A stretch of 64,000 nt of DNA from Tulasnella sp. 424 (taxonomy: Eukaryota; Basidiomycota; Agaricomycetes; Cantharellales; Tulasnellaceae), in the NCBI GenBank assembly GCA_019633425.1, contig WSUB01000098.1, forward strand, positions 1 to 64,000, written 5' to 3'. The notes beneath the pieces were generated by a model. That model had not been told where the DNA came from, did no database searches, and saw only the letters and a program-made list of their open reading frames with translations. The position numbers were made by a program, and so were the translations under genes. This document shows, piece after piece, positions 16,976-29,624 of the stretch (position 1 is the stretch's first letter; the number at the start of each line of letters is the position of its first letter).

Positions 16976-19050
16976 ATGTCAACCTGCCTAGAGTTCCATC
17001 CTTCAAACCTTATAGCTATAGGTACTGCTTTCCATATCCTGATTGAGAACCTCGTTGACAGGGATTTCGTCTAGCGTCGCCTAATCGCAAGAAACCGCTG
17101 GAATTGACGTTGACAAACACTTTGGCCAGTCACCCACTGGTATTTCGGGCTTGTATCGAGAAGCAACCGTCTTGTTTCCAGATTTCCTTGCCAAACGGAT
17201 ATGGAACAGCTCTTCACGCGGTAACAAGCCGCGATAAGAGGGACAAAGTAGTCTACACTTTCCGGCCGGAAACACTTCTAGGTGGGTACTATGTTGCCGT
17301 GTCTGGGATATCCAACGCCACGATGCTCACGTTTCTTTTTCCTGGACTTCCGCACCACGCGTAGTCGAGCGCACCGAACATGAGGAGCCCCTGGACTCGA
17401 GTCGTGATACCAACGCTGTGGTGATCGACTGGTGTACTATCTTACCTACCGAAGTCGATAAGTTTGTTGGAACAAAGCAGGAATCTATGGTAAATTCGAT
17501 CGGAAAGCATTATACCATAAACTCACTTAGACTCCTCCACAGTGGAAGAAGGCATGGAATCGAGCAACAACCCACAATTCCCTGTCCAGAGGCACCTTTC
17601 GTGTCCCAATCGAGATATTCAACCCGAATATCTCCATTAATCCGATAGGTGAGTATTTTTATTGAATGGTTGAGCTAACGATCTCACAGGTATTTCCCGT
17701 CCGCAGAGACCTGGAAAGACCGCCGTCGTTGGACAAACTTCACTTATAGACCTGGCGTAGAAGACAAAGCAGCCGTTTTCAAACCTCAAACCTTCAAGCA
17801 GTATGCGGATGGCTTCTTTATGCGTCTTTGGGACTGCAAGATGGTGATCGGAGAAAGAAGTGACGAGGAGGATGTGAAGAAGGTGTGGCTGCTCTACGCC
17901 GCCATAGATCCCGTACCTTGAAGGCTCACAGTTCGGTCATTTCAGGTCGTCGTTAAGGAAATGCGAATCGTCAGTAGAAGTAGCGGTATTACCCTCGATA
18001 TGGAACGCATTCGGAAGGTGAGCGGCTTCCTTCGCCTTCTGATGGGAAAGGGCCTTCGTTTGACACGCCTGCTAGCGAGCGAAACGAAACTTCCAAGTCT
18101 GGATGAAGTTGGATCACGAAAACGTTGATTCTATCCTAGGAGAAATCCTGCACCCTGAGATCTGCATAATGACCCCGCGGTACGAGTGCGGAGACGTTTT
18201 GGACTACCTTCGGACCCAGCAAAGGACTTCCTCGAGCTGGAAAGACAAACGGGAGACTCGAGTTAGGCTGGTATGAAATTCAAATTTTGGGAGCTATATG
18301 TATTAAATGCTGAATTGTCTTGGGACTAGATTAAAGAGGTTACATTCGGCCTTGAATATCTTCACTCTCAGGAGGTCGTTCATGGAGATTTACACCACGT
18401 AGGTCCAGCTGGATGGTTCCTGGCACGTCATAACTAAACTTCAAAATTTCACTCCCCATAGGTCCATGTCTTTATTGATCAGGATGGACGTGTTAAAATT
18501 GCAAACTACGGATTGGCGGGGATACTTGCGAAGGAGCAACTTGACCGTCCTTGGATCGGTTCCCCCGCACGTTACCTGACTCCGGAATATGTCATGGCTA
18601 ACGCACCTCCCACAAAGCACAGCGACGTCTACAGATACGGGCTTCTCATATTAGAGGCGAGTTTCTCGACGTATCTTTCCAGCCGCGTCGCTATTAACAT
18701 CGGATCACCAGATTGCAGCTGGCGAGACTGCTTTCAGTGGGCTCTTCCCGGGCCCAGCCGAGATGACTAGGGATATGGTTGACGAGACACACCTTCCGAA
18801 GCCGGCAAAGTTTAGGCGTACCCTAAAGGAAACCGGCCCTTTCTGGAACATCTTTCATCGGTGTTGCGCGTCCCTTCCTGGGGAGCGGCCCTCGATCCAG
18901 ACCATATCGCAACAGATCCATGTCATCTCTTTTCTAGAGGAGGTTTACCAGGGGCCTCGTAAGGGAGAGGTACTCAAAGACAATGCACTCAGTGAGAAGG
19001 CAGAGGAGGGAATAAAGGACGAAGGTCCGAACAGACAAGAGAAACCATAG
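16976..19050 (+). CDS. MSP-like domain fused to a kinase-fold domain, divergent member A (apparent pseudokinase)
   Basis: Ten exons (16976-17021, 17075-17281, 17365-17489, 17543-17648, 17707-17882, 17946-18017, 18076-18270, 18330-18398, 18462-18656, 18712-19050) join in frame to 509 aa with the same intron positions as the three genes downstream. Residues 1 to about 110 resemble a VAP/MSP beta-sandwich (KPLELTLTNT, PLVFRACIE, FQISLPNGYG). The kinase part keeps the beta-3 lysine (VVVKEMR) and HGDL, but the metal-binding DFG is NYG (VKIANYGLAG) and APE is TPE, so catalysis is doubtful. The last intron starts with GC (GAG|gcgagt). The C-terminus carries about 40 extra Lys/Glu-rich residues. It is much more diverged than members B-D and not part of their recent duplication. 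The frame is intact throughout, so it is a gene and not a relic. Confidence 0.85.
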
Positions 19051-19900
19051 GAGAGGCGTATAAGGACGAAGATAGGAACGAGAAAGATGAGAGCTAAGGA
19101 GCGGAAAACTAGTCGTCAGGGAGGAAGAAAAAGAAAGCATCCGCATTCGTTGACCGATTGAGGTTGCGTCCTTCGTTTGCGCTGTAATAGTTAACCAAAT
19201 ATATCAAGAACACATTTGAGTAAACTTCATCCGGTCAGTTCTGTCAAATAAGGCCGCCGCTCCCAGGCACCGCTCTTACTCTCTTACCGTTGCTTGGCTG
19301 ACAGCAGCAATCGTGAGAGCAGTTGAGTCTGACTCAAGAGGCTGTGCAGCGGGGCTGAATCTCTCACCTGGTGCGTCATGTTTAGAGACAACAGTGAACA
19401 GCACAAGAGCTCGCTACGCTGAGGTAGATCCGTAGTCTAAGTTATCGAGTCCCAGTCTCATGGCAACGGCAAGCATTCTTGCACGGGAGTACTATATAGC
19501 AGCCGGTTGCTTCTCCAGAGGTTCGGGTCGGTGACGCCCAGCACCGAAAGCCTACATACACCATATTCAAGTCCTCTAGCACAATCCCCATCACGTAGCT
19601 TAGTGTGGTTGCCAAACATTTAACAATGGTATGGTGATGACGGATTCTGGGATCTGCCAGTATGGTGCAGTGCCAAACAAAGGGGATGCGCGCCGTTGTC
19701 AGGCTCCTCGAGAACCCCCAGCTTTAGCGATTCTTCTGCAAAGCGGACACGCACTGCACCCACGACGCACAAGTGTACGGGGAACTCTAATGGGATTGTG
19801 ACTACTCTCTCCGACCGACCTTTATTAATGGAGGTTTTGATTTTTTTAATGTCTGATCAGCATCTCAATCCTTCTCTCTCACCTCCCCACCGTACTCGCA
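19051..19900. other. Spacer and promoter region upstream of kinase B
   Basis: No gene is visible. From 19491 onward (ACTATATAGC...) the sequence is shared with the regions before kinases C and D, so the duplicated unit starts here and carries its own upstream sequence. The part before 19491 has no counterpart elsewhere in the window and no ERG25 fragment. Confidence 0.6.
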
Positions 19901-21916
19901 ATGGCCACGATCACAGTGGATCCTTCAACACTAACTTTTTCCGGTTTGTATTTCTCATTCACGATTGCTTTCTGTTCACGATTGCTTTCTGTTCACCGAC
20001 ATCCACCGATCCTCGACCGCATAGCACCATTCACGGGTGAAAAGGCTGTTCGAAAGGTGCAACTAACCAATAGAATGAGACGAACTCCTATCATATTTCA
20101 AGCCAGGATAGACTGTAGTCAGCCTGAGTTCTCCGTATTGCTTCCTGTCGGTTACGGGACAATCCTTCCTGAGCAGACCGTCGAGGTGTCTAGTAAGAGC
20201 TCCTAAGCGGAGGGTTGTCCTTGCTCCTATTGAGCTGTTCTCTTTATTAGTTAAACGCGTCGCTGAGACCGCTCCGGCGGTTCGTGATGGCACCTATGCA
20301 ACAGTCAAATTCTATTGGCGAGTCCTCCTCGAGAACGAACTTCGTTCTCTGTCAAGTGCGAATTATCAGACTCTCAAGCAGCTGGTGAGTAACTCAAGAC
20401 CTTAGGTATGTGTCTGAGATTCGACCTTACCATATCTTCGCACTTGCGCAGTGGGATGTCGCGGGAGCAAGAGCCAAAGCGCAAGGGTCCGCGAACGGCA
20501 TCGCCACTGTAGCAATCAGTATGTTCCATACAGGCATCAAGCAACGTCCTTACAGTCAGTCTTCTCCGCTCAAAGTAGCAATACTTAGTTATCCTGAAAC
20601 GCTTTTATTTCTAGCTACATGGAAAGATCCAAGAGAATGGACTTCCTTCACGTACCGACGACCGGGCGTAGAGAACAGAGCGGCATTTTTCAAGCCTCAG
20701 AAGTCGTCTCCAACTACGGGTGGAGCGTTTGGATCCCTATGGAAGTGCGTCATGAAGTTCGAACGAGACAATACGGTCTATACGGTGAGACGATCCGAAA
20801 TCCGCTGGCATGCTTGTTGTGCGCTTAACGCTTACGCCACGACGGGGTTAGATGGCCCTCAAGGAAATCAAACTGAGCGGAGCCGTGTTGCAGGTCCCCA
20901 TTGACCGTAAGAAAATTCTGACTGTATGTGGTCTTCTTACTCAGTATCTTCTAACCGACTTTACTGACTGAAGTCACTGAACCTCTTGAATGGCTCGTTT
21001 CCAGCGCGCCGAAAAGGAGCTCAACATTTGGAGACAGCTCAACCACCCCAACATCGGTTCGGTAATCGGGTGGCTTCTAGAGCCTACCGTATGTATCATG
21101 GCGCCATGGTACCCAAATGGCGATGTTTTGTCCTTCGTACAGGCACAGAAAGCCAGGCCAATTGGTGATCAGCGAATGGACAGGTGGCGACTGGTAAGTG
21201 CAGGGTCCCATAGCGTTTGCTTATCGTTTCTCATATAGTATTCTCTTGCAGGTCAAAGAGATTACCAATGGAATGTATTACCTCCACTCTAGGAATGTGG
21301 TCCACGGGGACTTGCGACATGTAAGCCTGCCGAGGAAACAAGGAATCGCCATTCCATGATCCTGAAAGATCATTGTGAACAGGACCAGGTCCTAGTTGAC
21401 GATTATGGACACGCCAAAATCGTTGACTTTGGGCTGTCGAAAGTGATCGAAGAAGGGGTTGACATCAAGATCACTACAAGCATTCGACGGATGGGGGTAT
21501 ATGAGTATATGGCTCCAGAACTCCTCTTACAGACACCGCCGCGATTGAAAGCAAGCGATGTCTATGCTTTTGGTCTCCTGATACTTGAGGTGCCTGCTTT
21601 CTCTCATTTTACGTGCTGCTCACCTCGCACCTTGTTTTCTAACCCACACGGCCATCACTTCCTGTAGGTTGCGGTCGCCCGCGTTGCGTTCAACGGTTTA
21701 ACACCAGGCCCCGCCCAGGTAGTGCGAAAAATCGTTCAGAAGACGCATCTCCCAGGACCTGCAAACTTCAAGCACGTTTTACTGGAAAGGAGTATTTTTT
21801 GGGACACCTTCAACCAATGCACAGCCGATTTGCCCAAGGACCGGCCCCCAATGTCGACGGTCATCCGGCAACTTGACGCGATTCAGTTACCGCTCGACTA
21901 CATCTATAGGCGGTAA
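19901..21916 (+). CDS. MSP-like domain fused to a protein kinase, member B
   Basis: Ten exons (19901-19943, 20025-20192, 20251-20384, 20452-20554, 20615-20784, 20852-20923, 21005-21193, 21252-21320, 21383-21589, 21668-21916) join in frame to 467 aa. Residues 1 to about 100 match the VAP/MSP fold in order and spacing: ITVDPSTLTFSAPFTGEK, KVQLTNR, PIIFQARID, LLPVGYGTILPEQTVEVS. There is no membrane anchor. A linker of about 90 aa follows, then a kinase domain: GGAFGSLWKC glycine loop, MALKEIK lysine, RAEKELNIW helix C, VVHGDLRH, VDFGLS, and MAPELLLQTPPR. The HGDL...DFG style is typical of the TKL-like kinases expanded in Agaricomycetes. The catalytic-loop Asn that binds Mg is Gln (HGDLRHDQVLVD). 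Substrate and role are unknown. Confidence 0.9.
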
Positions 21917-22747
21917 TCGAGTGATAGGAACGCAAGACTCGCCAAGTTCGCGCAGTGGATAGTAAAGCTATAGAATAAGAACGAGCAGGTGTTATAATAT
22001 AATACTATTTCTATATGCGTACTAATAATGTATAACAGTAGGTGGGCACCGAGAGCGGTCCCATGACGCGTTGAATATTATGATGCGAGGGCGCTTTGGA
22101 CGTTGTAATCGACTAGAACATGATGGAAGAGCGTTATTGAGTTCGACGGTGCAATGGGTGAGAGGGACGAGTTGGGTACATTCCCATTGCTGAGCGGCGG
22201 TTGGGATTTTGTTCTAGCAACGCCTCGGCATTAGTAGAAATCCATCTCAAAAAAACCCTACAAGACATTGCTTGAAGGTTGCAACTTCCATTGTCGGGTG
22301 CACCGGATTACTATATAGCAGCCGGTTGCTTCTCCAGAGGTTTAGGTCGTTGACGCCCAGCACCGAAAGCCTACATACAGCACATTCAAGCCTTCTGGCA
22401 CAATCCCCGTCACGTAGCTTAGTGTGGTTGCCAAACATTTAACAATGGTATAATGAAACCACGTACAGAGGCTGGTGGTGACGGATTCTGGGAGCCGCCA
22501 GTATGATGCAGGCCAAACAAAGGGAATGCGGCCGTTGAGGGCCGTTGTCAGGCTCCTCGAAACCCCCCAGCTTTAGCGATTCTTCTGCGAAGCGGACATG
22601 AACCGCATCCACGAGGCACAAGTGTACGGGGGACTCTAGGGGGATTGTGACTATTCTCTCCGACCGACCTTTATCAATGGAGGTTTGATTTCTTCCTTTC
22701 TGATCAGCATCTCAATCCCTCTCTCTCACCTCCGCACCGTACCCGCA
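21917..22747. other. Spacer between kinases B and C, containing an ERG25 fragment
   Basis: It holds the 3' flank of kinase B, the decayed ERG25 piece (separate entry), and from 22310 the duplicated upstream region of kinase C. No other gene is visible. Confidence 0.7.
22045..22297 (-). pseudogene. ERG25 internal-exon fragment 1 (decayed)
   Basis: This stretch aligns by eye with 28460-28725 inside ERG25: intron 3, exon 3, intron 2 and the start of exon 2. It has lost about 13 bp that covered the exon 3 splice donor, and the flanking exons are absent. It cannot encode a hydroxylase. It marks the junction between duplication units B and C. Confidence 0.85.
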
Positions 22748-24744
22748 ATGGCCACGATCACAGTTAATCCTCCAACACTAATTTTTTCCGGTTTGTATTT
22801 CTCATTCATGATTGCTTTCTGCTCACCGACATCCACCGATCCTCGACCGCATAGCACCATTCACGGGTGAAAAAGCCGTTCGAAAGGTGCAACTAACCAA
22901 TAGAATGAATCGAACTCCTATCATATTTCAAGCCAGGATAGACTCAAGTCAACCCGAGTTCTCCATATTGCTTCCTGCTGGTTACGGGACAATCCTTCCT
23001 GAGCAGACCGTCGAGGTGTCTGGTAAGAGCTCCTAAGCGGAGGGTTGTCTTTGCTCCTATTGAGCTATCCTCTTTATTAGTTAAACGCGTCGCTGAGACT
23101 GCTCCGGCGGTTCGTGATGGCACCTATGCAACAGTCAAATTCTATTGGCGAGTCCTCCTCGAGAACGAACTTCGTTTTCTGTCAGGTGCGAATTATCAGA
23201 CTCTCAAGCAGCTGGTGAGTAACTCAAGGCCATAAGTATGTATGTCCGAGATTCGACCTTACCATATCTTCACACTTGCACAGTGGGATGTCGCGGGAGT
23301 AAGAGCCAAAGCGCAAAGGTCCGGGAACGGCATCACCACTGTAGCAATCGAAATATTCAATACAGGCATCAAGCAACGACCTTACAGTCAGTCTTCTCCG
23401 CTCGAAGCAGCAATACTTAGTTATCCTGAAACGCGTTTATTTCTAGCTACATGGAAAGACCCAAGAGCATGGACTTCCTTCACGTACCGACCGGGCGTAG
23501 AGAACAGAGCGGCATTTTTCAAGCCTCAGAAGCCGTCTCCAACTACGGGTGGAGCGTTTGGATCCCTATGGAAGTGCGACATGAAGTTCGAACGAGACAA
23601 TACGGTCTATACGGTGAGATTATCCGTAATCCGCTGGCGTGTTTGTTGTACACTTAACGCTTACGCCACGACGGGGTTAGGTGGCCCTTAAGGAAATCAG
23701 ACTGAGCGGAGCCGTGTTGCAGGTCCCCATTGACCGTAAGAAAATTCTGACTGTATGTGGCCTTCTTACTCAGTATCTTCTAACCGAATTTACTGACTGG
23801 AGTCACTGAACCTCTTGAATGGCTCGTTTCCAGCGCGCCGAAAAGGAGCTCAACGTCTGGAGACAGCTCCAACACCCCAACATCGGTTCGGTAATCGGGT
23901 GGCTTCTAGAGCCTACCGTATGTCTCATGGCGCCATGGTACCCAAATGGCGATGTTTTGTCCTTCGTACAGGCACAGAAAGCCAGGCCAATTGGTGATCA
24001 GCGAATGGACAGGTGGCGACTGGTAGGTGCAGGGTCCCATAGCATTTGCGTATTGTTTCTTATATAGTACTTTCTTGCAGGTCAGAGAGATTACCGATGG
24101 AATGTATTACCTCCACTCTAGGAATGTGGTCCACGGGGACTTGCGATATGTAAGCCTGCCGAATAAACAAGGAATCGCCATTCCATGATCCTGAACCATC
24201 ATTGTGTACAGGACCAGGTCCTAGTTGACGATTATGGACACGCCAAAATCGTTGACTTTGGGTTGGCGAAAGTGATTGAAGACGGGGTTGACAACAAGAT
24301 CACAACAAGCATTCGACAGAAGGGGCGATACGAGTATATGGCTCCAGAACTCCTCTTACAGACACCGCCGCGATTGAAAGCGAGCGATGTCTACGCTTTC
24401 GGTCTTCTGATACTTGAGGTGCCTGCTTTCTCTCATTTTCCTGCTGCTCACCTCGCACCTTGTTTTCTAACCCACACGGCCATCACTACCTGTAGGTTGC
24501 GGTCGCCCGAGTTGCATTCAACGGTTTAACACCAGGCCCCGCCCAGGTAACGCGAAAAATCGTTGAGAAGAAGCATCTCCCAGGGCCTGCAAACTTCAAG
24601 CACGTTCTACTGGAAAGGAGTGTTTTTTGGGACACCTTCAACCAATGCACCTCCGATTTGCCTAAGCACCGGCCCCCGATGTCAACGGTCGTCCAGCTAC
24701 TTTACGCGATTCAATCACCGCTCGACTACATCTATAGGCGGTAA
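22748..24744 (+). CDS. MSP-like domain fused to a protein kinase, member C
   Basis: Same ten-exon structure as member B, giving about 466 aa (one Arg fewer in the TYRPG segment). The MSP-like part reads ITVNPPTLIFSAPFTGEK to EQTVEVSVKRVAE. The kinase has VALKEIR at the ATP-binding lysine, RAEKELNVWRQL helix C, VVHGDLRY, VDFGLAKVIEDG and MAPELLLQTPPR. As in B, the Mg-binding Asn of the catalytic loop is Gln. All splice sites and the frame are intact, and most differences from B are substitutions, so it looks like a functional recent duplicate. It starts at the ATG aligned with members B and D, preceded by the same conserved leader. Confidence 0.89.
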
Positions 24745-25566
24745 TCGAGTGATAGGAACGCAAGACTCGCCAAGTGAGCGCAGTGGATAGTAAAGCTATA
24801 GAATAAGAACGAGCAGGGGTTATAATATAATACTATTTCTATGTGCGTACTAATAATGTATCACAGACGGTGGGCACTGAGAGCGGTCCCATGACGCGTT
24901 GAATATTATGGTGAGAGGGCGCTTTGGACGCTGCACTCGACTAGAACATGATGGAAGAGCGTTATTGCTCACCTGAGGGAGTTTGACGGAGCAATGGGTG
25001 AGAAGGACGAGTTGGGTACATTCCCATTGCTGAGCGGCGGTTGGATTTTGTTCTAGCAACGCCTCTGCATTAGTCAAAATTCATCTGAATAAAAACTTCC
25101 AATACTTGCTTACAGGTTGCAACTTTCATTGTCGGATGCACGGGATTACTATATAGCAGGTGGATGCTTCTCCAGAGGTTTGGTCGGCGACGCCCAGCAC
25201 CGAAAGCCTACATCCACCACATTCAAGCCCTCTGGCACAATATCCCGTCACGTAACTTAGTGTGATTGCCAAACATTTAACAATAGTATAATGAAATCAC
25301 ACACAGATTCTGGTGGCGGGCTCTGGGAGCGCCACCATGTAGGGCCAAACAAAGGGAATATGGCTGTTGTCAGGCTGCTCTAGAACAATCAGCTTTAGCG
25401 ATTCTTCTGCGAAGCGGACACGAACCGCACCCACGTGACACAAGTGTACGAGGAACTCTAGGGGGACTGTGTACTGTCTCGAAAGACCTTTATTAACGGA
25501 GGTTTGGTTTTTTACTGTCTGATCAGCATCTCAATCCCTCTCTCTCACCTCCCCACCGTACTCGCG
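24745..25566. other. Spacer between kinases C and D, containing an ERG25 fragment
   Basis: 3' flank of kinase C, then the second ERG25 fragment, then from about 25148 the duplicated upstream region of kinase D. No independent gene is visible. Confidence 0.7.
24873..25135 (-). pseudogene. ERG25 internal-exon fragment 2 (decayed)
   Basis: Copy of the same ERG25 segment as the fragment at 22045. Here the exon 3 donor (CAG|gtgagc) is retained, but the coding part has changed residues (HFTVELPQ has become HCSVKLPQ), and exon 1, most of exon 2 and exon 4 are missing. It is non-functional. Confidence 0.85.
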
Positions 25567-27546
25567 ATGGCCACGATCACAGTTGATCCTCCAACACTAA
25601 TTTTTTCCGGTTTGTCTCTCTCATTCACGATTGCTTTCTGCTCACTGACATCCACCGATCCTCGACCGCATAGCACCATTCACGGGTGAAAAGGCCGTTA
25701 GAAAGGTGCAACTGACCAATAGAATGGCTCGAACTCCTATCATATTTCAAACCAGGATAGACTCAAGTCAAGCCGAGTTCTCCGTATTGCTTCCTTCCGG
25801 GTACGGAACAATCCTTCCAGGGAAGAGCGTCGAAGTGTCCGGTAAGAGCTGCCGGGCGGAGGATTCAAGTATTTGCTCCTATTAAGCTCTCCTCCCTTTC
25901 AGTTAAGCGCGTCGCTGAGACTGCCCCGGCGGTTTGTGCTGGCACCTACGCAACAGTCAACTTTTATTGGCGAACCCTCTTCGAGAGCGAGGTTCGTTCC
26001 CTGTCAAATGCGAATTACCAGACTCTCAAGCAGCTGGTGAGCAACTTAAGGCCTTATGTATCCGAGATTCTAACTTACCATAACTCTGCACTTACACAGT
26101 GGGGTGTCGCGGGAGAAAGAGCCAAAGCACAAAGATCCAGGAACGGCATTGTCACTGCAGCAATCGAATTGTTTAATACAGGCATCAAGCAGCGTCCTTA
26201 CAGTCAGTCTTCTCCGCTCGAAGCAGCAATACTTAGTTATCCTGAAACGCGTTTATTTCTAGCTACATGGAAAGACCCAAAAGAATGGACTTCCTTCACG
26301 TACCGCCCGGGCGTAGAAAACAGGAAGGCATTGTTCAAGCCTCAGAAGTCGTCTCCAACGACGGGTGGAGCGTTTGGATCCCTATGGAGGTGTGACATGA
26401 AGTACGAACACGAAGATGCAGTCTATACGGTAAGATGAGCCGCAGTCGGCTGGCATGCTTGTCGTGTGCTTAACGCTTACGCCACGACGGGATTAGGTGG
26501 CCCTCAAGGAAATCAGGCTCAGCGGTGCCGTATTGCAGGTCCCCATCGACCGTAAAAAAGTTCTGACTGTACGTGGCCTTCTTACTCGGTATCTGTTAAT
26601 AAACTTGACTGACTGACTTGCGTGGTTCGTTTCCAGCGCGCCGAAAAGGAGCTCAGCGTCTGGAGAGAGCTCGACCACCCCAACATCGGCTTGGTGATAG
26701 GGTGGCTTCTGGAGCCTACCGTATGTCTCATGGCTCCTTGGTACCCAAATGGCGATGTTTTGGCCTTCGTACAGGGACAGAAAAATATGACCCTCAGCGA
26801 TCAGCGAATGAACAGGTGGCGGCTGGTAAGTGCAGGGTTTCATAGCGTTTGCGTATTGTCACTCACACCATATTTTCTTGCAGGTCAAAGAGATTACCGA
26901 AGGGATGGAATACCTCCACTTCAAGAAGGTTATCCACGGGGACTTGCGACATGTAAGCCTGCCGAGGAACAAGGAATCACCATTCCATGATTCTGAGAGA
27001 TTACTGTCAACAGGACCAGGTCCTAGTTGACGAGGATGGACATGCCAAAATCGTTGACTTTGGATTGGCGAAAGTGATCGAAGACGGGGTTGACAACAAG
27101 ATCACAACAAGCATTCGACAGAAGGGGCGATACGAGTACATGGCTCCAGAACTTCTCTTCCACACACCGCCGCGATTGAAAGCGAGCGATGTTTACGCTT
27201 TTGGTCTTTTGATACTCGAGGTGCCTGCTTTCTCTTATTTCCCTGCTGCTCACCTCGCACCCTGTTCTCTAACCCGCATGGCCATCACTTCCTGTAGGTT
27301 GCGGTCGCCCGAGTTGCATTCAGCGGTTTAACCCCAGGTCCCGCTGAGGTAACGCGAAAAATCGTTGAGAAGACGCATCTCCCTGGGCCTGCAAACTTCA
27401 AGCACGTTCTACTGGAGGAGAGTGCTTTTTGGAATATCTTCAACCAATGCACCGCCGATTTGCCTAAGAACCGACCCCTAATGTCAACGGTCAAAGAGCA
27501 ACTCGACAAGGTTCAATCGCCGCTCGGCGACATCTATAGGTCGTAA
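25567..27546 (+). CDS. MSP-like domain fused to a protein kinase, member D
   Basis: Third recent copy, same exon pattern, about 466 aa. The MSP-like domain is slightly closer to the VAP pattern (GTILPGKSVEVSVKRV, with the Pro-Gly turn). The kinase has GGAFGSLWRC, VALKEIR, RAEKELSVWREL, VIHGDLRHDQVLVDEDG, VDFGLAKVIEDG and MAPELLFHTPPR. Catalytic Asp and DFG are present, and the loop Asn is again Gln. It is the copy nearest ERG25 and the most diverged of the three (for example QGQKNMTLSD in place of QAQKARPIGD), consistent with being the oldest. I see no break. Confidence 0.89.
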
Positions 27547-27729
27547 CCGAGTGATAGGAACGCAAGACTCGCCAAGTTCACGCAGTGGATAGTAAAACCA
27601 TAGAGTATGAACGAGCAGGGGTTATAATAATATACTATCTACCTTCTATGAGCGTACTAATAATGTATTACAGACGGTGGGGGTGTGGTAATGGTATGCA
27701 GTGGGGTCAATGACAGACATAACCGACGA

Positions 27730-29036
27730 TTACTGGGTCTTGGCCTTGAAGGCTTCGTTCCAGTCTCCCTTCTCTGCTTGCTGCTCAGCCAAAACACCCT
27801 CAGCCTCGGTCTCGGCCATCAGCTTAGCCTCGATGGCATCGTTCTCGGCCTTGGACAACTCGTGCTTAACAGCAGCACGAGCCTTGGCCTTCTCCTCGGC
27901 GACACGCTTGCGGTATGCGCGGTACTTGTTGTCGGTGCCGAAGATGAAGTCGAGGTAGCGGAAAGAGGTGGAGTAGTTGTTGGTGAAGGCCATGTGGTGG
28001 AAGTCGTGATGCTCAGCGCCAGACCACAAGGGGAAGATGTTGTGGAGGGACCAGGGGAAGTCATAGCCGGAGTGAGCGTCCACTGCTTGCCATAACCGGA
28101 GGACGATCCAGGTGTACATGGTGACGATGTGGAGGTTGCCGGTGAGGTAGCAGTAGAGCAGAGGTCCACCCACGGTACCCAAGCCGAGGATCAAGATCTC
28201 CAAAGGATGAGCGTACTCGGCAGCGAGACCGAAGGGGGCAGAGTACTTGTGATGAAGCTTGTGAATGCGACGGTAGAGGGGTCCGTAGTGAAGGGCTTGG
28301 TGTGCGACGTAGTGCCAGGCGTCTTCAATGATGAAGAAGAGAGCGACTTGAAGTGCCATAGTCTTAAGCTCGGGGAAGGGAACCTGGAACGTTTGCATAC
28401 CAAAGGCGACGGCGAGAGGGTGGAACAGGAAGATCTGCGAAAAAATAGGGTCAGTCACGGGCACCGAAAGCGGTCACATGACGCGTTGAATATTATGGTG
28501 CGAGGGCGCTTTGGACGCTGCACTCGACCAGAACATGATAGAGGAACGGTATTGCTCACCTGAGGGAGTTCGACGGTGAAGTGGGTGAGAAGGACGAGTT
28601 TGGTGCATTCCCATTGCTGGGCGGCGGTTGGGATTTTGTTCTAGTAACACCTCGGCATTAGCCAAAATTCATCGAAAGAAAAACTTCAAAAACGTTGCTT
28701 ACTGGTTGCAACTTCCATTGTCGGAAGTATGGTATGCTGTCAATGATGATCCACGGCACGCAACGGCCAAAGTACACAAACTGGAATGAAGGGCAACACT
28801 CGTCAGTCCAGGTCACAATTTCGGCAACGGCAGTGAAGAACACACACCTCATGGAGGATGAAGCTCATGAGACCAGTTGCAAGTACTGGGTTGCCAACAA
28901 AGATATACCATGCTGCCCATTGTTTTTCAAGCCATGATAACGAAGAAAAGTCGAGCGTGTCGTAGAGGTGAGCTGGGTTTTCCTCTTCATGGAAGAGGCT
29001 CGTAGCGAACGAAGAGAGAGTCGTGGCGTTATACAT
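27730..29036 (-). CDS. ERG25: C-4 methylsterol oxidase (ERG25), ergosterol biosynthesis
   Basis: An ER membrane di-iron oxygenase that oxidises the C-4 methyl groups of sterols on the way to ergosterol. Four exons (29036-28848, 28780-28703, 28640-28560, 28434-27730) give 350 aa. The His clusters of the fatty-acid-hydroxylase superfamily are present: [23 protein letters not shown] and [10 protein letters not shown], with the [23 protein letters not shown] ending typical of ERG25. Hydrophobic segments surround them. A charged Ala/Glu/Lys-rich tail of about 50 residues follows the catalytic region and makes the protein longer than the roughly 300 aa of yeast. This is the only intact copy; two internal fragments lie in the kinase array. 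The stop lies about 180 bp from the end of kinase D, tail to tail. Confidence 0.97.
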
Positions 29037-29624
29037 GGCGGAAGAGGGGAGGAGCGGGGAGGAGGGAGGAGGGGAGGTGAAGATTTGGGTGTCCAGGTGA
29101 GGTGGACTTTTTAAGTAGCGGTGGGAGAGGACGCAAAGAATGAAATGGGACGATTGGTTGCATCGTTCGACTTTTTTCGCTGCCCTGGGACCCTGACGAA
29201 ATTTCGGGCGCCACTACCAAAACATCGCGAGACTTCTTTCACAAACGGCAAATACTCACCGAAATCGTGCCATGTTAGAACGACACCACTTTTTACTATA
29301 GCGACCATGAACGGGGAATGACATTGATTCTATTGTGAATTTCCGACGACAGAGATCTCAGACATCAAGCGGAGGCCGAAGCGAACCAGTAAATAACCAG
29401 GATATGACGAATGCGATCAGAAAGAAGATCACAGTCGGCTAATATAGTGGTACAGAGGGTCAATAGATGGGCAAAAAATCATTGGGTCACGAGGGGCTGT
29501 CGGGCGAAAACGCGAGAGTTTAATCAAAGTGCTAGGAAGAAACGGCTTAAAGACGCACCGATTGTTTATCATGCAGTCATTCTTACAGGTATACCCTGCT
29601 CGACTTCGGCATCCGAAGATTGGT
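29037..29624. promoter_or_regulatory. ERG25 upstream region and 3' flank of the first F-box gene
   Basis: The left part (29037-29310) is the ERG25 5' flank, with a purine-rich (GGAGGGAGGAGG) leader on the plus strand. From about 29316 the sequence matches the 3' flanks of the other two F-box genes. No further gene is seen. Confidence 0.6.

What the first reader, a model, noticed from the sequence alone, without database searches (positions are those of the whole stretch)
16976..27546. Four tandem genes fusing a VAP/MSP-like domain to a protein kinase
All four spliced models start with about 100 residues whose strand order and spacing match VAP/major-sperm-protein domains (DP..L.FS.PFTGEKA....LTN....PI.FQAR... 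LP.GYGTI.PEQTVEV), followed about 90 residues later by a TKL-like kinase domain. VAP proteins normally end in a membrane anchor and recruit FFAT-motif lipid-transfer proteins at the ER; here the anchor is replaced by a kinase. I know of no description of this fusion in fungi. A kinase recruited to FFAT-like or other VAP ligands is an inference. The positively charged FFAT-binding patch is not obviously conserved.
Basis: partly seen in the sequence, partly recalled or inferred. Interest (0 to 1): 0.85.

Follow-up and report, generated by a model that had tools for sequence, protein, structure and literature searches.

The report
Fungal MSP-like domain–kinase fusion array
An orchid-associated fungus carries a tandem array of genes, one of them probably a dead kinase, that join a protein-docking domain resembling the VAP/major-sperm-protein fold to a signalling kinase, a combination described in wheat in the opposite order.

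Summary
Four tandem ten-exon genes (VK1-VK4) lie at 16976-19050, 19901-21916, 22748-24744 and 25567-27546, with identical intron phases although VK1 is diverged. The contig is from Tulasnella sp. 424; the close relatives listed are all Tulasnella. The kinase half is certain. The N-terminal half (about 148 residues) is probably an MSP/PapD-like domain: PF00635 and related Ig-like models lead for VK2-VK4, but below cut-off, and VK1 shows it only by homology. The fusion is supported by the sp. 427 protein P0006, which carries both halves, and by a second array on contig C29, where one gene model scores above cut-off for both MSP and kinase. Between 9 and 15 such loci were seen in this genome, depending on how many hand-read or possibly duplicated copies are counted. 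The VAP reading is weak: the KTTAP loop is lost and there is no membrane anchor. VK1 (NYG for DFG) looks like a pseudokinase; VK2-VK4 have Gln for the catalytic-loop Asn. The known parallel is wheat Snn3 (kinase then MSP); nine literature searches gave no fungal description. Best reading: cytosolic kinases/pseudokinases aimed by a diverged MSP-like docking domain. Ligand, activity and expression are untested.

The parts
16976..19050 (+). VK1, 10 exons, 509 aa: diverged MSP-like domain + TKL-like pseudokinase (NYG for DFG; HGDLHHVHV catalytic loop)
   Evidence: exons 16976-17021, 17075-17281, 17365-17489, 17543-17648, 17707-17882, 17946-18017, 18076-18270, 18330-18398, 18462-18656, 18712-19050
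19901..21916 (+). VK2, 10 exons, 467 aa: MSP-like domain (about 1-148) + linker + TKL-like kinase; HGDLRHDQV, DFG
   Evidence: (P0003, FRC04_012218, starts at an inner Met)
22748..24744 (+). VK3, 10 exons, 466 aa: same layout; HGDLRYDQV, DFG
   Evidence: (P0002, FRC04_012219, starts at an inner Met)
25567..27546 (+). VK4, 10 exons, 466 aa: same layout; HGDLRHDQV, DFG
   Evidence: (P0001, FRC04_012220, 100% identical over 93% of VK4, starts at an inner Met)
25567..26202 (+). exons 1-4 of VK4: MSP-like N-terminal domain, residues 1 to about 148
   Evidence: secondary structure of the P0006 model. The Pfam match itself covers residues 4-76 only
26263..27546 (+). exons 5-10 of VK4: linker (WKDPKEWTSFTYRPGVEN) and kinase domain
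19480..22297 (+). first tandem unit (5' flank, VK2, 3' flank); copies lie 2.80-2.85 kb apart
22299..25135 (+). second tandem unit (VK3)
25137..28724 (+). third tandem unit (VK4); its 3' flank is displaced by about 785 bases, with an FA_hydroxylase ORF (minus strand) lying in between

Best explanation
VK1-VK4 are paralogous cytosolic signalling proteins of Tulasnella. An N-terminal MSP/PapD-like (Ig-fold) domain acts as a docking module. A short conserved linker joins it to a TKL-like kinase domain that relays, or in VK1 only scaffolds, a signal. The VK2-VK4 array grew by tandem duplication of a 2.8-kb gene unit. The fused layout, the duplication and the catalytic-residue status are shown from sequence; selection on both halves is shown but modest. 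The MSP assignment is probable. Docking by the MSP domain and signalling by the kinase are inferred from the families. Which ligand is bound is unknown; a classical FFAT peptide is unlikely.
For: Ten-exon models with identical intron phases in 4 of 4 genes. Kinase PF07714 at 100.5-122.5 bits in 4 of 4. PF00635 and Cep192/HYDIN-type models lead the N-domain matches of VK2-VK4, with 0 of 10 shuffles. The sp. 427 protein P0006 carries both halves. The C29b gene of the same genome has PF00635 27.4 bits (cut-off 25.9, residues 13-103) and PF07714 130.6 bits in one model; its fourth exon, 741 bases from residue 115 on, runs unbroken into the kinase glycine loop, starting in what I read as the last part of the MSP domain, beyond the Pfam match. 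NG86 dN/dS of VK4 against VK3 and VK2 is 0.38-0.41 for the MSP part and 0.32-0.37 for the rest. VALK/MALK, HGD, DFG and APE are kept in VK2-VK4; NYG in VK1. AlphaFold model of P0006: seven strands between residues 11 and 94, helices 97-103 and 108-124, and a strand at 130-136, an order that fits an MSP sandwich (expectation recalled).
Against: PF00635 is below cut-off for VK2-VK4 and absent for VK1. hhalign of the VK domain against the C29a/C29b MSP pair is weak (probability 3.4, E 0.013). A PDB profile search ranked htpG (E 0.083) above SCS2 (0.36). The fold search did not reach the N-domain, and model confidence is under 50 at residues 1-8 and 11-22. Exons are hardly more alike than introns between VK2, VK3 and VK4 (94.3 v 92.6%, 86.3 v 85.6%, 88.4 v 85.4%), and VK3/VK2 dN/dS is 0.77 for the MSP part, so constraint is modest. 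Gln in place of the Mg-binding Asn may mean low activity. No expression data.
Confidence: 0.64

Rival explanations
1. True VAP-like adaptors: the MSP domain binds FFAT or phospho-FFAT motifs at ER contact sites and brings the kinase there.
For: The pattern DPPTLIFSAPFTGEKAV...LTN aligns with SCS2 over residues 1-75 (E 0.86-1.1) or 1-72 of the profile (E 0.36-0.44).
Against: The SCS2 KTTAP stretch is replaced by RIDSSQ/RIDCSQ in VK2-VK4 and otherwise in VK1 and P0006; no membrane anchor; the SCS2 matches are not significant on their own.
Confidence: 0.1
2. A diversifying recognition family: the MSP-like domain senses a foreign or self ligand and the kinase/pseudokinase relays it, by analogy with the monocot MSP-kinase Snn3 and tandem-kinase resistance proteins. 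(Overlaps with the best explanation: it adds a role to the docking.)
For: Arrays on C447 and C29/C117 with 9 to 15 loci. N-domain diverges faster than kinase (VK1 27 v 43%, P0006 40 v 66%, P0004 40 v 60%). Kinases and pseudokinases mixed. A kinase joined to the start of a second kinase in C29b. Snn3 is described as a kinase with a C-terminal MSP domain predicted to perceive an effector (PMC9528087 passages).
Against: Between VK4 and VK2/VK3 the N-domain is as conserved as the kinase (81-84 v 79-82%), and dN/dS is below 1 in every comparison that could be computed. No ligand, expression or population data; fungal families can grow in tandem without any recognition role.
Confidence: 0.15
3. The N-domain is not an MSP domain proper but an ASH/CFAP/Cep192-type PapD-like domain, or another Ig-like domain, with an unrelated partner. 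(Overlaps with the best explanation, which allows a PapD-like domain.)
For: Cep192_D6 or HYDIN-type models score as well as or better than PF00635 for VK2-VK4 and P0006.
Against: C29b and C29d, of the same layout, score best with PF00635 above cut-off; but C29a is below it (18.7 bits) and their likeness to the VK domain is weak.
Confidence: 0.25
4. Artefact: two adjacent genes joined by the splice models, or a decaying pseudogene array.
For: NCBI models of VK2-VK4 omit exon 1 and the start of exon 2, and two of them drop a 54-base stretch. Exon and intron identities are close. In C29b the Pfam MSP match ends (residue 103) before the exon that carries the glycine loop (from residue 115), so that join also needs one splice.
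Against: Identical intron phases in 4 of 4 and no frameshift; dN/dS 0.32-0.54 for whole genes and kinase parts of VK2-VK4; P0006 fused in another isolate's annotation.
Confidence: 0.05

Closest known systems
Monocot protein kinase-major sperm protein genes (wheat Snn3; Zhang et al. 2021, seen only as cited in PMC9528087)
   Same: Intracellular kinase joined to an MSP domain in one protein.
   Different: Order is kinase then MSP in Snn3, MSP then kinase here; plant against fungus; PMC9528087 calls the combination specific to monocots. No sequence comparison between the two was made.
VAP / Scs2 proteins
   Same: N-terminal MSP-like pattern (SCS2 is the best PDB match, not significant, E 0.86).
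   Different: KTTAP loop lost, no membrane anchor, kinase in its place.
Fungal TKL / FslK kinase expansions of Agaricomycetes (PMC3937382 and PMC2838846, passages)
   Same: Amplification of tyrosine-kinase-like kinases in mushroom-class and mycorrhizal fungi.
   Different: Main-text searches of PMC2838846 for 'sperm' and 'MSP' gave no partner domain; PMC3937382 was not searched for it. Membership of VK kinases in FslK was not tested.
Tandem-kinase fusion proteins of wheat (Lr9, PMC10260399, passages)
   Same: Kinases fused to integrated domains; C29b runs into the start of a second kinase.
   Different: VK1-VK4 have a single kinase domain; no immune role shown.

Membership tests
MSP domain (PF00635) | score above Pfam gathering cut-off 25.9 bits | tested here: not met
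   VK2-VK4 15.2-17.2 bits, VK1 not listed. Elsewhere in the genome met by C29b (27.4 whole model, 32.4 domain) and C29d (31.2), not by C29a (18.7) or the C29c piece
MSP / PapD-like superfamily | seven-stranded Ig-like sandwich | tested here: inconclusive
   AlphaFold strands fit but fold searches covered the kinase only
VAP | KTTAP stretch of the FFAT-binding loop, as in SCS2 (its role recalled) | tested here: not met
   alignment: absent from VK1-VK4 and P0006
VAP | C-terminal membrane anchor | tested here: not met
   no hydrophobic C-terminal segment; the hydropathy maximum lies inside the kinase domain in VK1-VK4
VAP | binding of FFAT motifs | not testable with these tools
   needs a binding assay
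Eukaryotic protein kinase, TKL-like | kinase domain above cut-off, PF07714 best | tested here: met
   4 of 4, 100.5-122.5 bits
Active protein kinase (VK2-VK4) | beta-3 Lys, HxD Asp, DFG Asp | tested here: met
   3 of 3
Active protein kinase (VK1) | DFG Asp | tested here: not met
   NYG
Active protein kinase | catalytic-loop Asn | tested here: not met
   Gln in VK2-VK4 and P0004-P0006, His in VK1
Monocot MSP-kinase (Snn3 type) | kinase N-terminal, MSP C-terminal | tested here: not met
   order is reversed (against PMC9528087)
FslK kinases | phylogenetic placement with FslK | not tested
   no reference sequences used

The most novel reading that the evidence does not exclude
Tulasnella has evolved, independently of grasses, an intracellular receptor-like family in which a fast-diverging MSP-like domain recognises a ligand and a kinase or pseudokinase relays it, used in symbiosis, allorecognition or defence; the window array is one cluster of it.
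Probability: 0.13. Interest if true: 0.8.

Novelty: new variant of a known kind. Interest (0 to 1): 0.55.

Why it matters
A review states that genes with MSP and kinase domains are specific to monocots (PMC9528087). A fungal family with the reverse order would show the combination arising again, in a genus of orchid mycorrhizal partners where 266 kinase-like genes change expression in symbiosis (PMC11503967 passages, Tulasnella sp. SV6; whether these genes are among them is unknown). It also gives a small, testable set of likely active and dead kinases with one docking domain.

Tried and rejected
Structure: the first AlphaFold job, with 6 sequences, was useless (mean pLDDT 37.3). The PDB profile search put htpG (E 0.083) above SCS2 (E 0.36), neither significant.

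Wider relatives: two region searches of the N-domain returned only the NCBI versions of VK2-VK4 (3 of 318 candidates) and P0006 itself (1 of 167), so distribution outside Tulasnella is poorly tested. The C29 type was never searched for outside this genome. One search scored 7,994 candidates, found 1,109 with E up to 0.001 and listed 120; I printed nine. VK1 was not among the 120.

Are MSP domains common upstream of other Tulasnella kinases? I fetched 13 stretches around related kinases and scanned them with local profiles: 0 of 13 below E 0.2. The scan is weak for domains split by introns.

N-domains of VK5-VK8 gave no MSP match in Pfam (0 of 4) and the C29c piece none; tblastn with VK1-VK4 and P0006 found only kinase and linker parts of VK5-VK8. 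Their relation to the VK N-domain rests on my reading of exon 1 and the intron place, and the models of VK7/VK8 were guided by VK4. The automatic N-termini of VK5 and VK6 are wrong; I read them by hand, assuming a GC-AG first intron. A 33-base intron in the C29b model is doubtful.

The rival figures overlap and need not sum to one.
Full report
What is there. Splicing by hand gave four complete genes, VK1-VK4, each with ten exons. Intron phases are the same in all four, although VK1 shares only 27% of the N-domain, 53% of the linker and 43% of the kinase with VK4. VK2-VK4 are 86-94% identical in exons and 85-93% in introns, in a tandem repeat with copies 2.80-2.85 kb apart. Searched as DNA, the two flanks of the unit occur only in the three units of this array (3 matches each).

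Whose genome. VK4 is 100% identical over 93% of its length to FRC04_012220 of Tulasnella sp. 424, on a contig of 157,313 bases, which is the length of contig C447 that holds the window. FRC04_012218 and FRC04_012219 correspond to VK2 and VK3. The other close relatives listed are from Tulasnella sp. 417 (partial), T. calospora MUT 4182 (kinase part only) and sp. 427 (P0004-P0006). The NCBI models of VK2-VK4 start at an inner Met and so miss exon 1; P0006 starts with the equivalent of exon 1 and runs into the kinase.

The N-terminal domain. It spans exons 1-4, residues 1 to about 148; the Pfam match itself covers residues 4-77. PF00635 gives 15.2-17.2 bits for VK2-VK4 (cut-off 25.9), behind or beside Cep192_D6 and HYDIN models. 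On the isolated domain 4 of 6 members match PF00635, best E 5e-4, and 0 of 10 shuffles match any of these models. A single-sequence PDB search names SCS2 first, without significance (E 0.86); the profile search puts htpG first. The AlphaFold model shows a fitting strand series, but the structure libraries were not tested for this part. I hold the PapD-like class as likely and MSP proper as probable.

The kinase. PF07714 is the best model in 4 of 4. VK2-VK4 keep VALK/MALK, HGD, DFG and APE but have Gln for the catalytic-loop Asn, as do P0004-P0006. VK1 has NYG for DFG and His in the loop. VK1 is thus a likely pseudokinase; the others are atypical.

A wider family in the same genome. Contig C29 holds five genes of this layout (a-e) and C117 two near copies of d and e. 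C29e and its C117 copy are cut by contig ends, so C117 may be another version of the end of C29. The C29b model scores PF00635 27.4 bits and PF07714 130.6 bits, both above cut-off. Its 741-base exon 110597-111337 runs unbroken into the kinase glycine loop and begins, at residue 115, in a segment that I read as the end of the MSP domain; Pfam's MSP match stops at residue 103, one exon earlier. C447 itself carries four more kinase genes of the VK kind at 110.9-123.4 kb, two per strand, VK5-VK8. VK7 and VK8 begin LTFNPPLLTLREPF and LTFDPPVLTLREPF after three residues, against ITVDPPTLIFSAPF in VK4, with a phase-1 intron at the same place; VK8 has GFG for DFG. The N-domains of VK5-VK8 have no Pfam or BLAST support. 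The count is therefore 9 (VK1-VK4, C29 a-e), 11 with C117, 15 with VK5-VK8. The VK4 and C29b kinases are 26% identical, while the best longer matches of VK4 to other kinases of the genome run at 32-36%; the two figures come from different methods, but separate fusions are possible.

Function. Both halves of VK4 against VK2/VK3 have dN/dS of 0.32-0.41, but VK3/VK2 reaches 0.77 in the MSP part and exons are hardly more alike than introns, so constraint is real but modest. Loss of the KTTAP stretch and the absence of an anchor speak against a VAP-like FFAT adaptor. K87 and M89 of VAPB are the residues whose double mutant loses FFAT binding (PMC4068158 passages); I could not place them with confidence in the VK domain. 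The best reading is a docking domain that aims a kinase or scaffold; ligand unknown.

Literature. Nine searches showed no fungal MSP-kinase description in their listings; most subscription papers are not in the library. Papers opened were seen as passages only. Snn3 of wheat is the one precedent found.

Verdict. Real, and a new variant of a known kind.

Noticed in passing
G000 contig C29:107188-126675 (L016-L018) and C117:1-4315 (L033): A second MSP-kinase array; C29b runs from its first kinase into the start of a second kinase domain in one ORF, a tandem-kinase layout.
   Followed up: partly
window 27733-29213 (-) and repeats at 22044-22297, 24872-25135, 28459-28724: An FA_hydroxylase gene (PF04116, 77.5 bits) overlaps the right end of the array. 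The 3' flanks of VK2 and VK3 carry remnants of what look like its inner exons (TAAQQWECT...LTH), so the duplication seems to have had a breakpoint in this neighbour. Likeness to the sterol oxidase ERG25 is recalled.
   Followed up: partly
window 21089-21142 and 23918-23971: NCBI models P0003/P0002 skip an in-frame 54-base GT..AG stretch coding the kinase hinge (VC[LI]MAPWYPNGDVLSFVQ); it is kept in P0001 and present in similar form in P0004-P0006. Misannotation or an exitron.
   Followed up: no
P0007 and P0010 (Ceratobasidium): Related kinases; P0007 carries PF24883 (a NACHT-type NTPase, name recalled) in front, another fungal kinase fusion.
   Followed up: no
window 18657-18711, and first introns of VK5/VK6 (L036, L037): GC-AG introns in this family (VK1 ninth intron; VK5/VK6 intron 1 as read by hand).
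   Followed up: no
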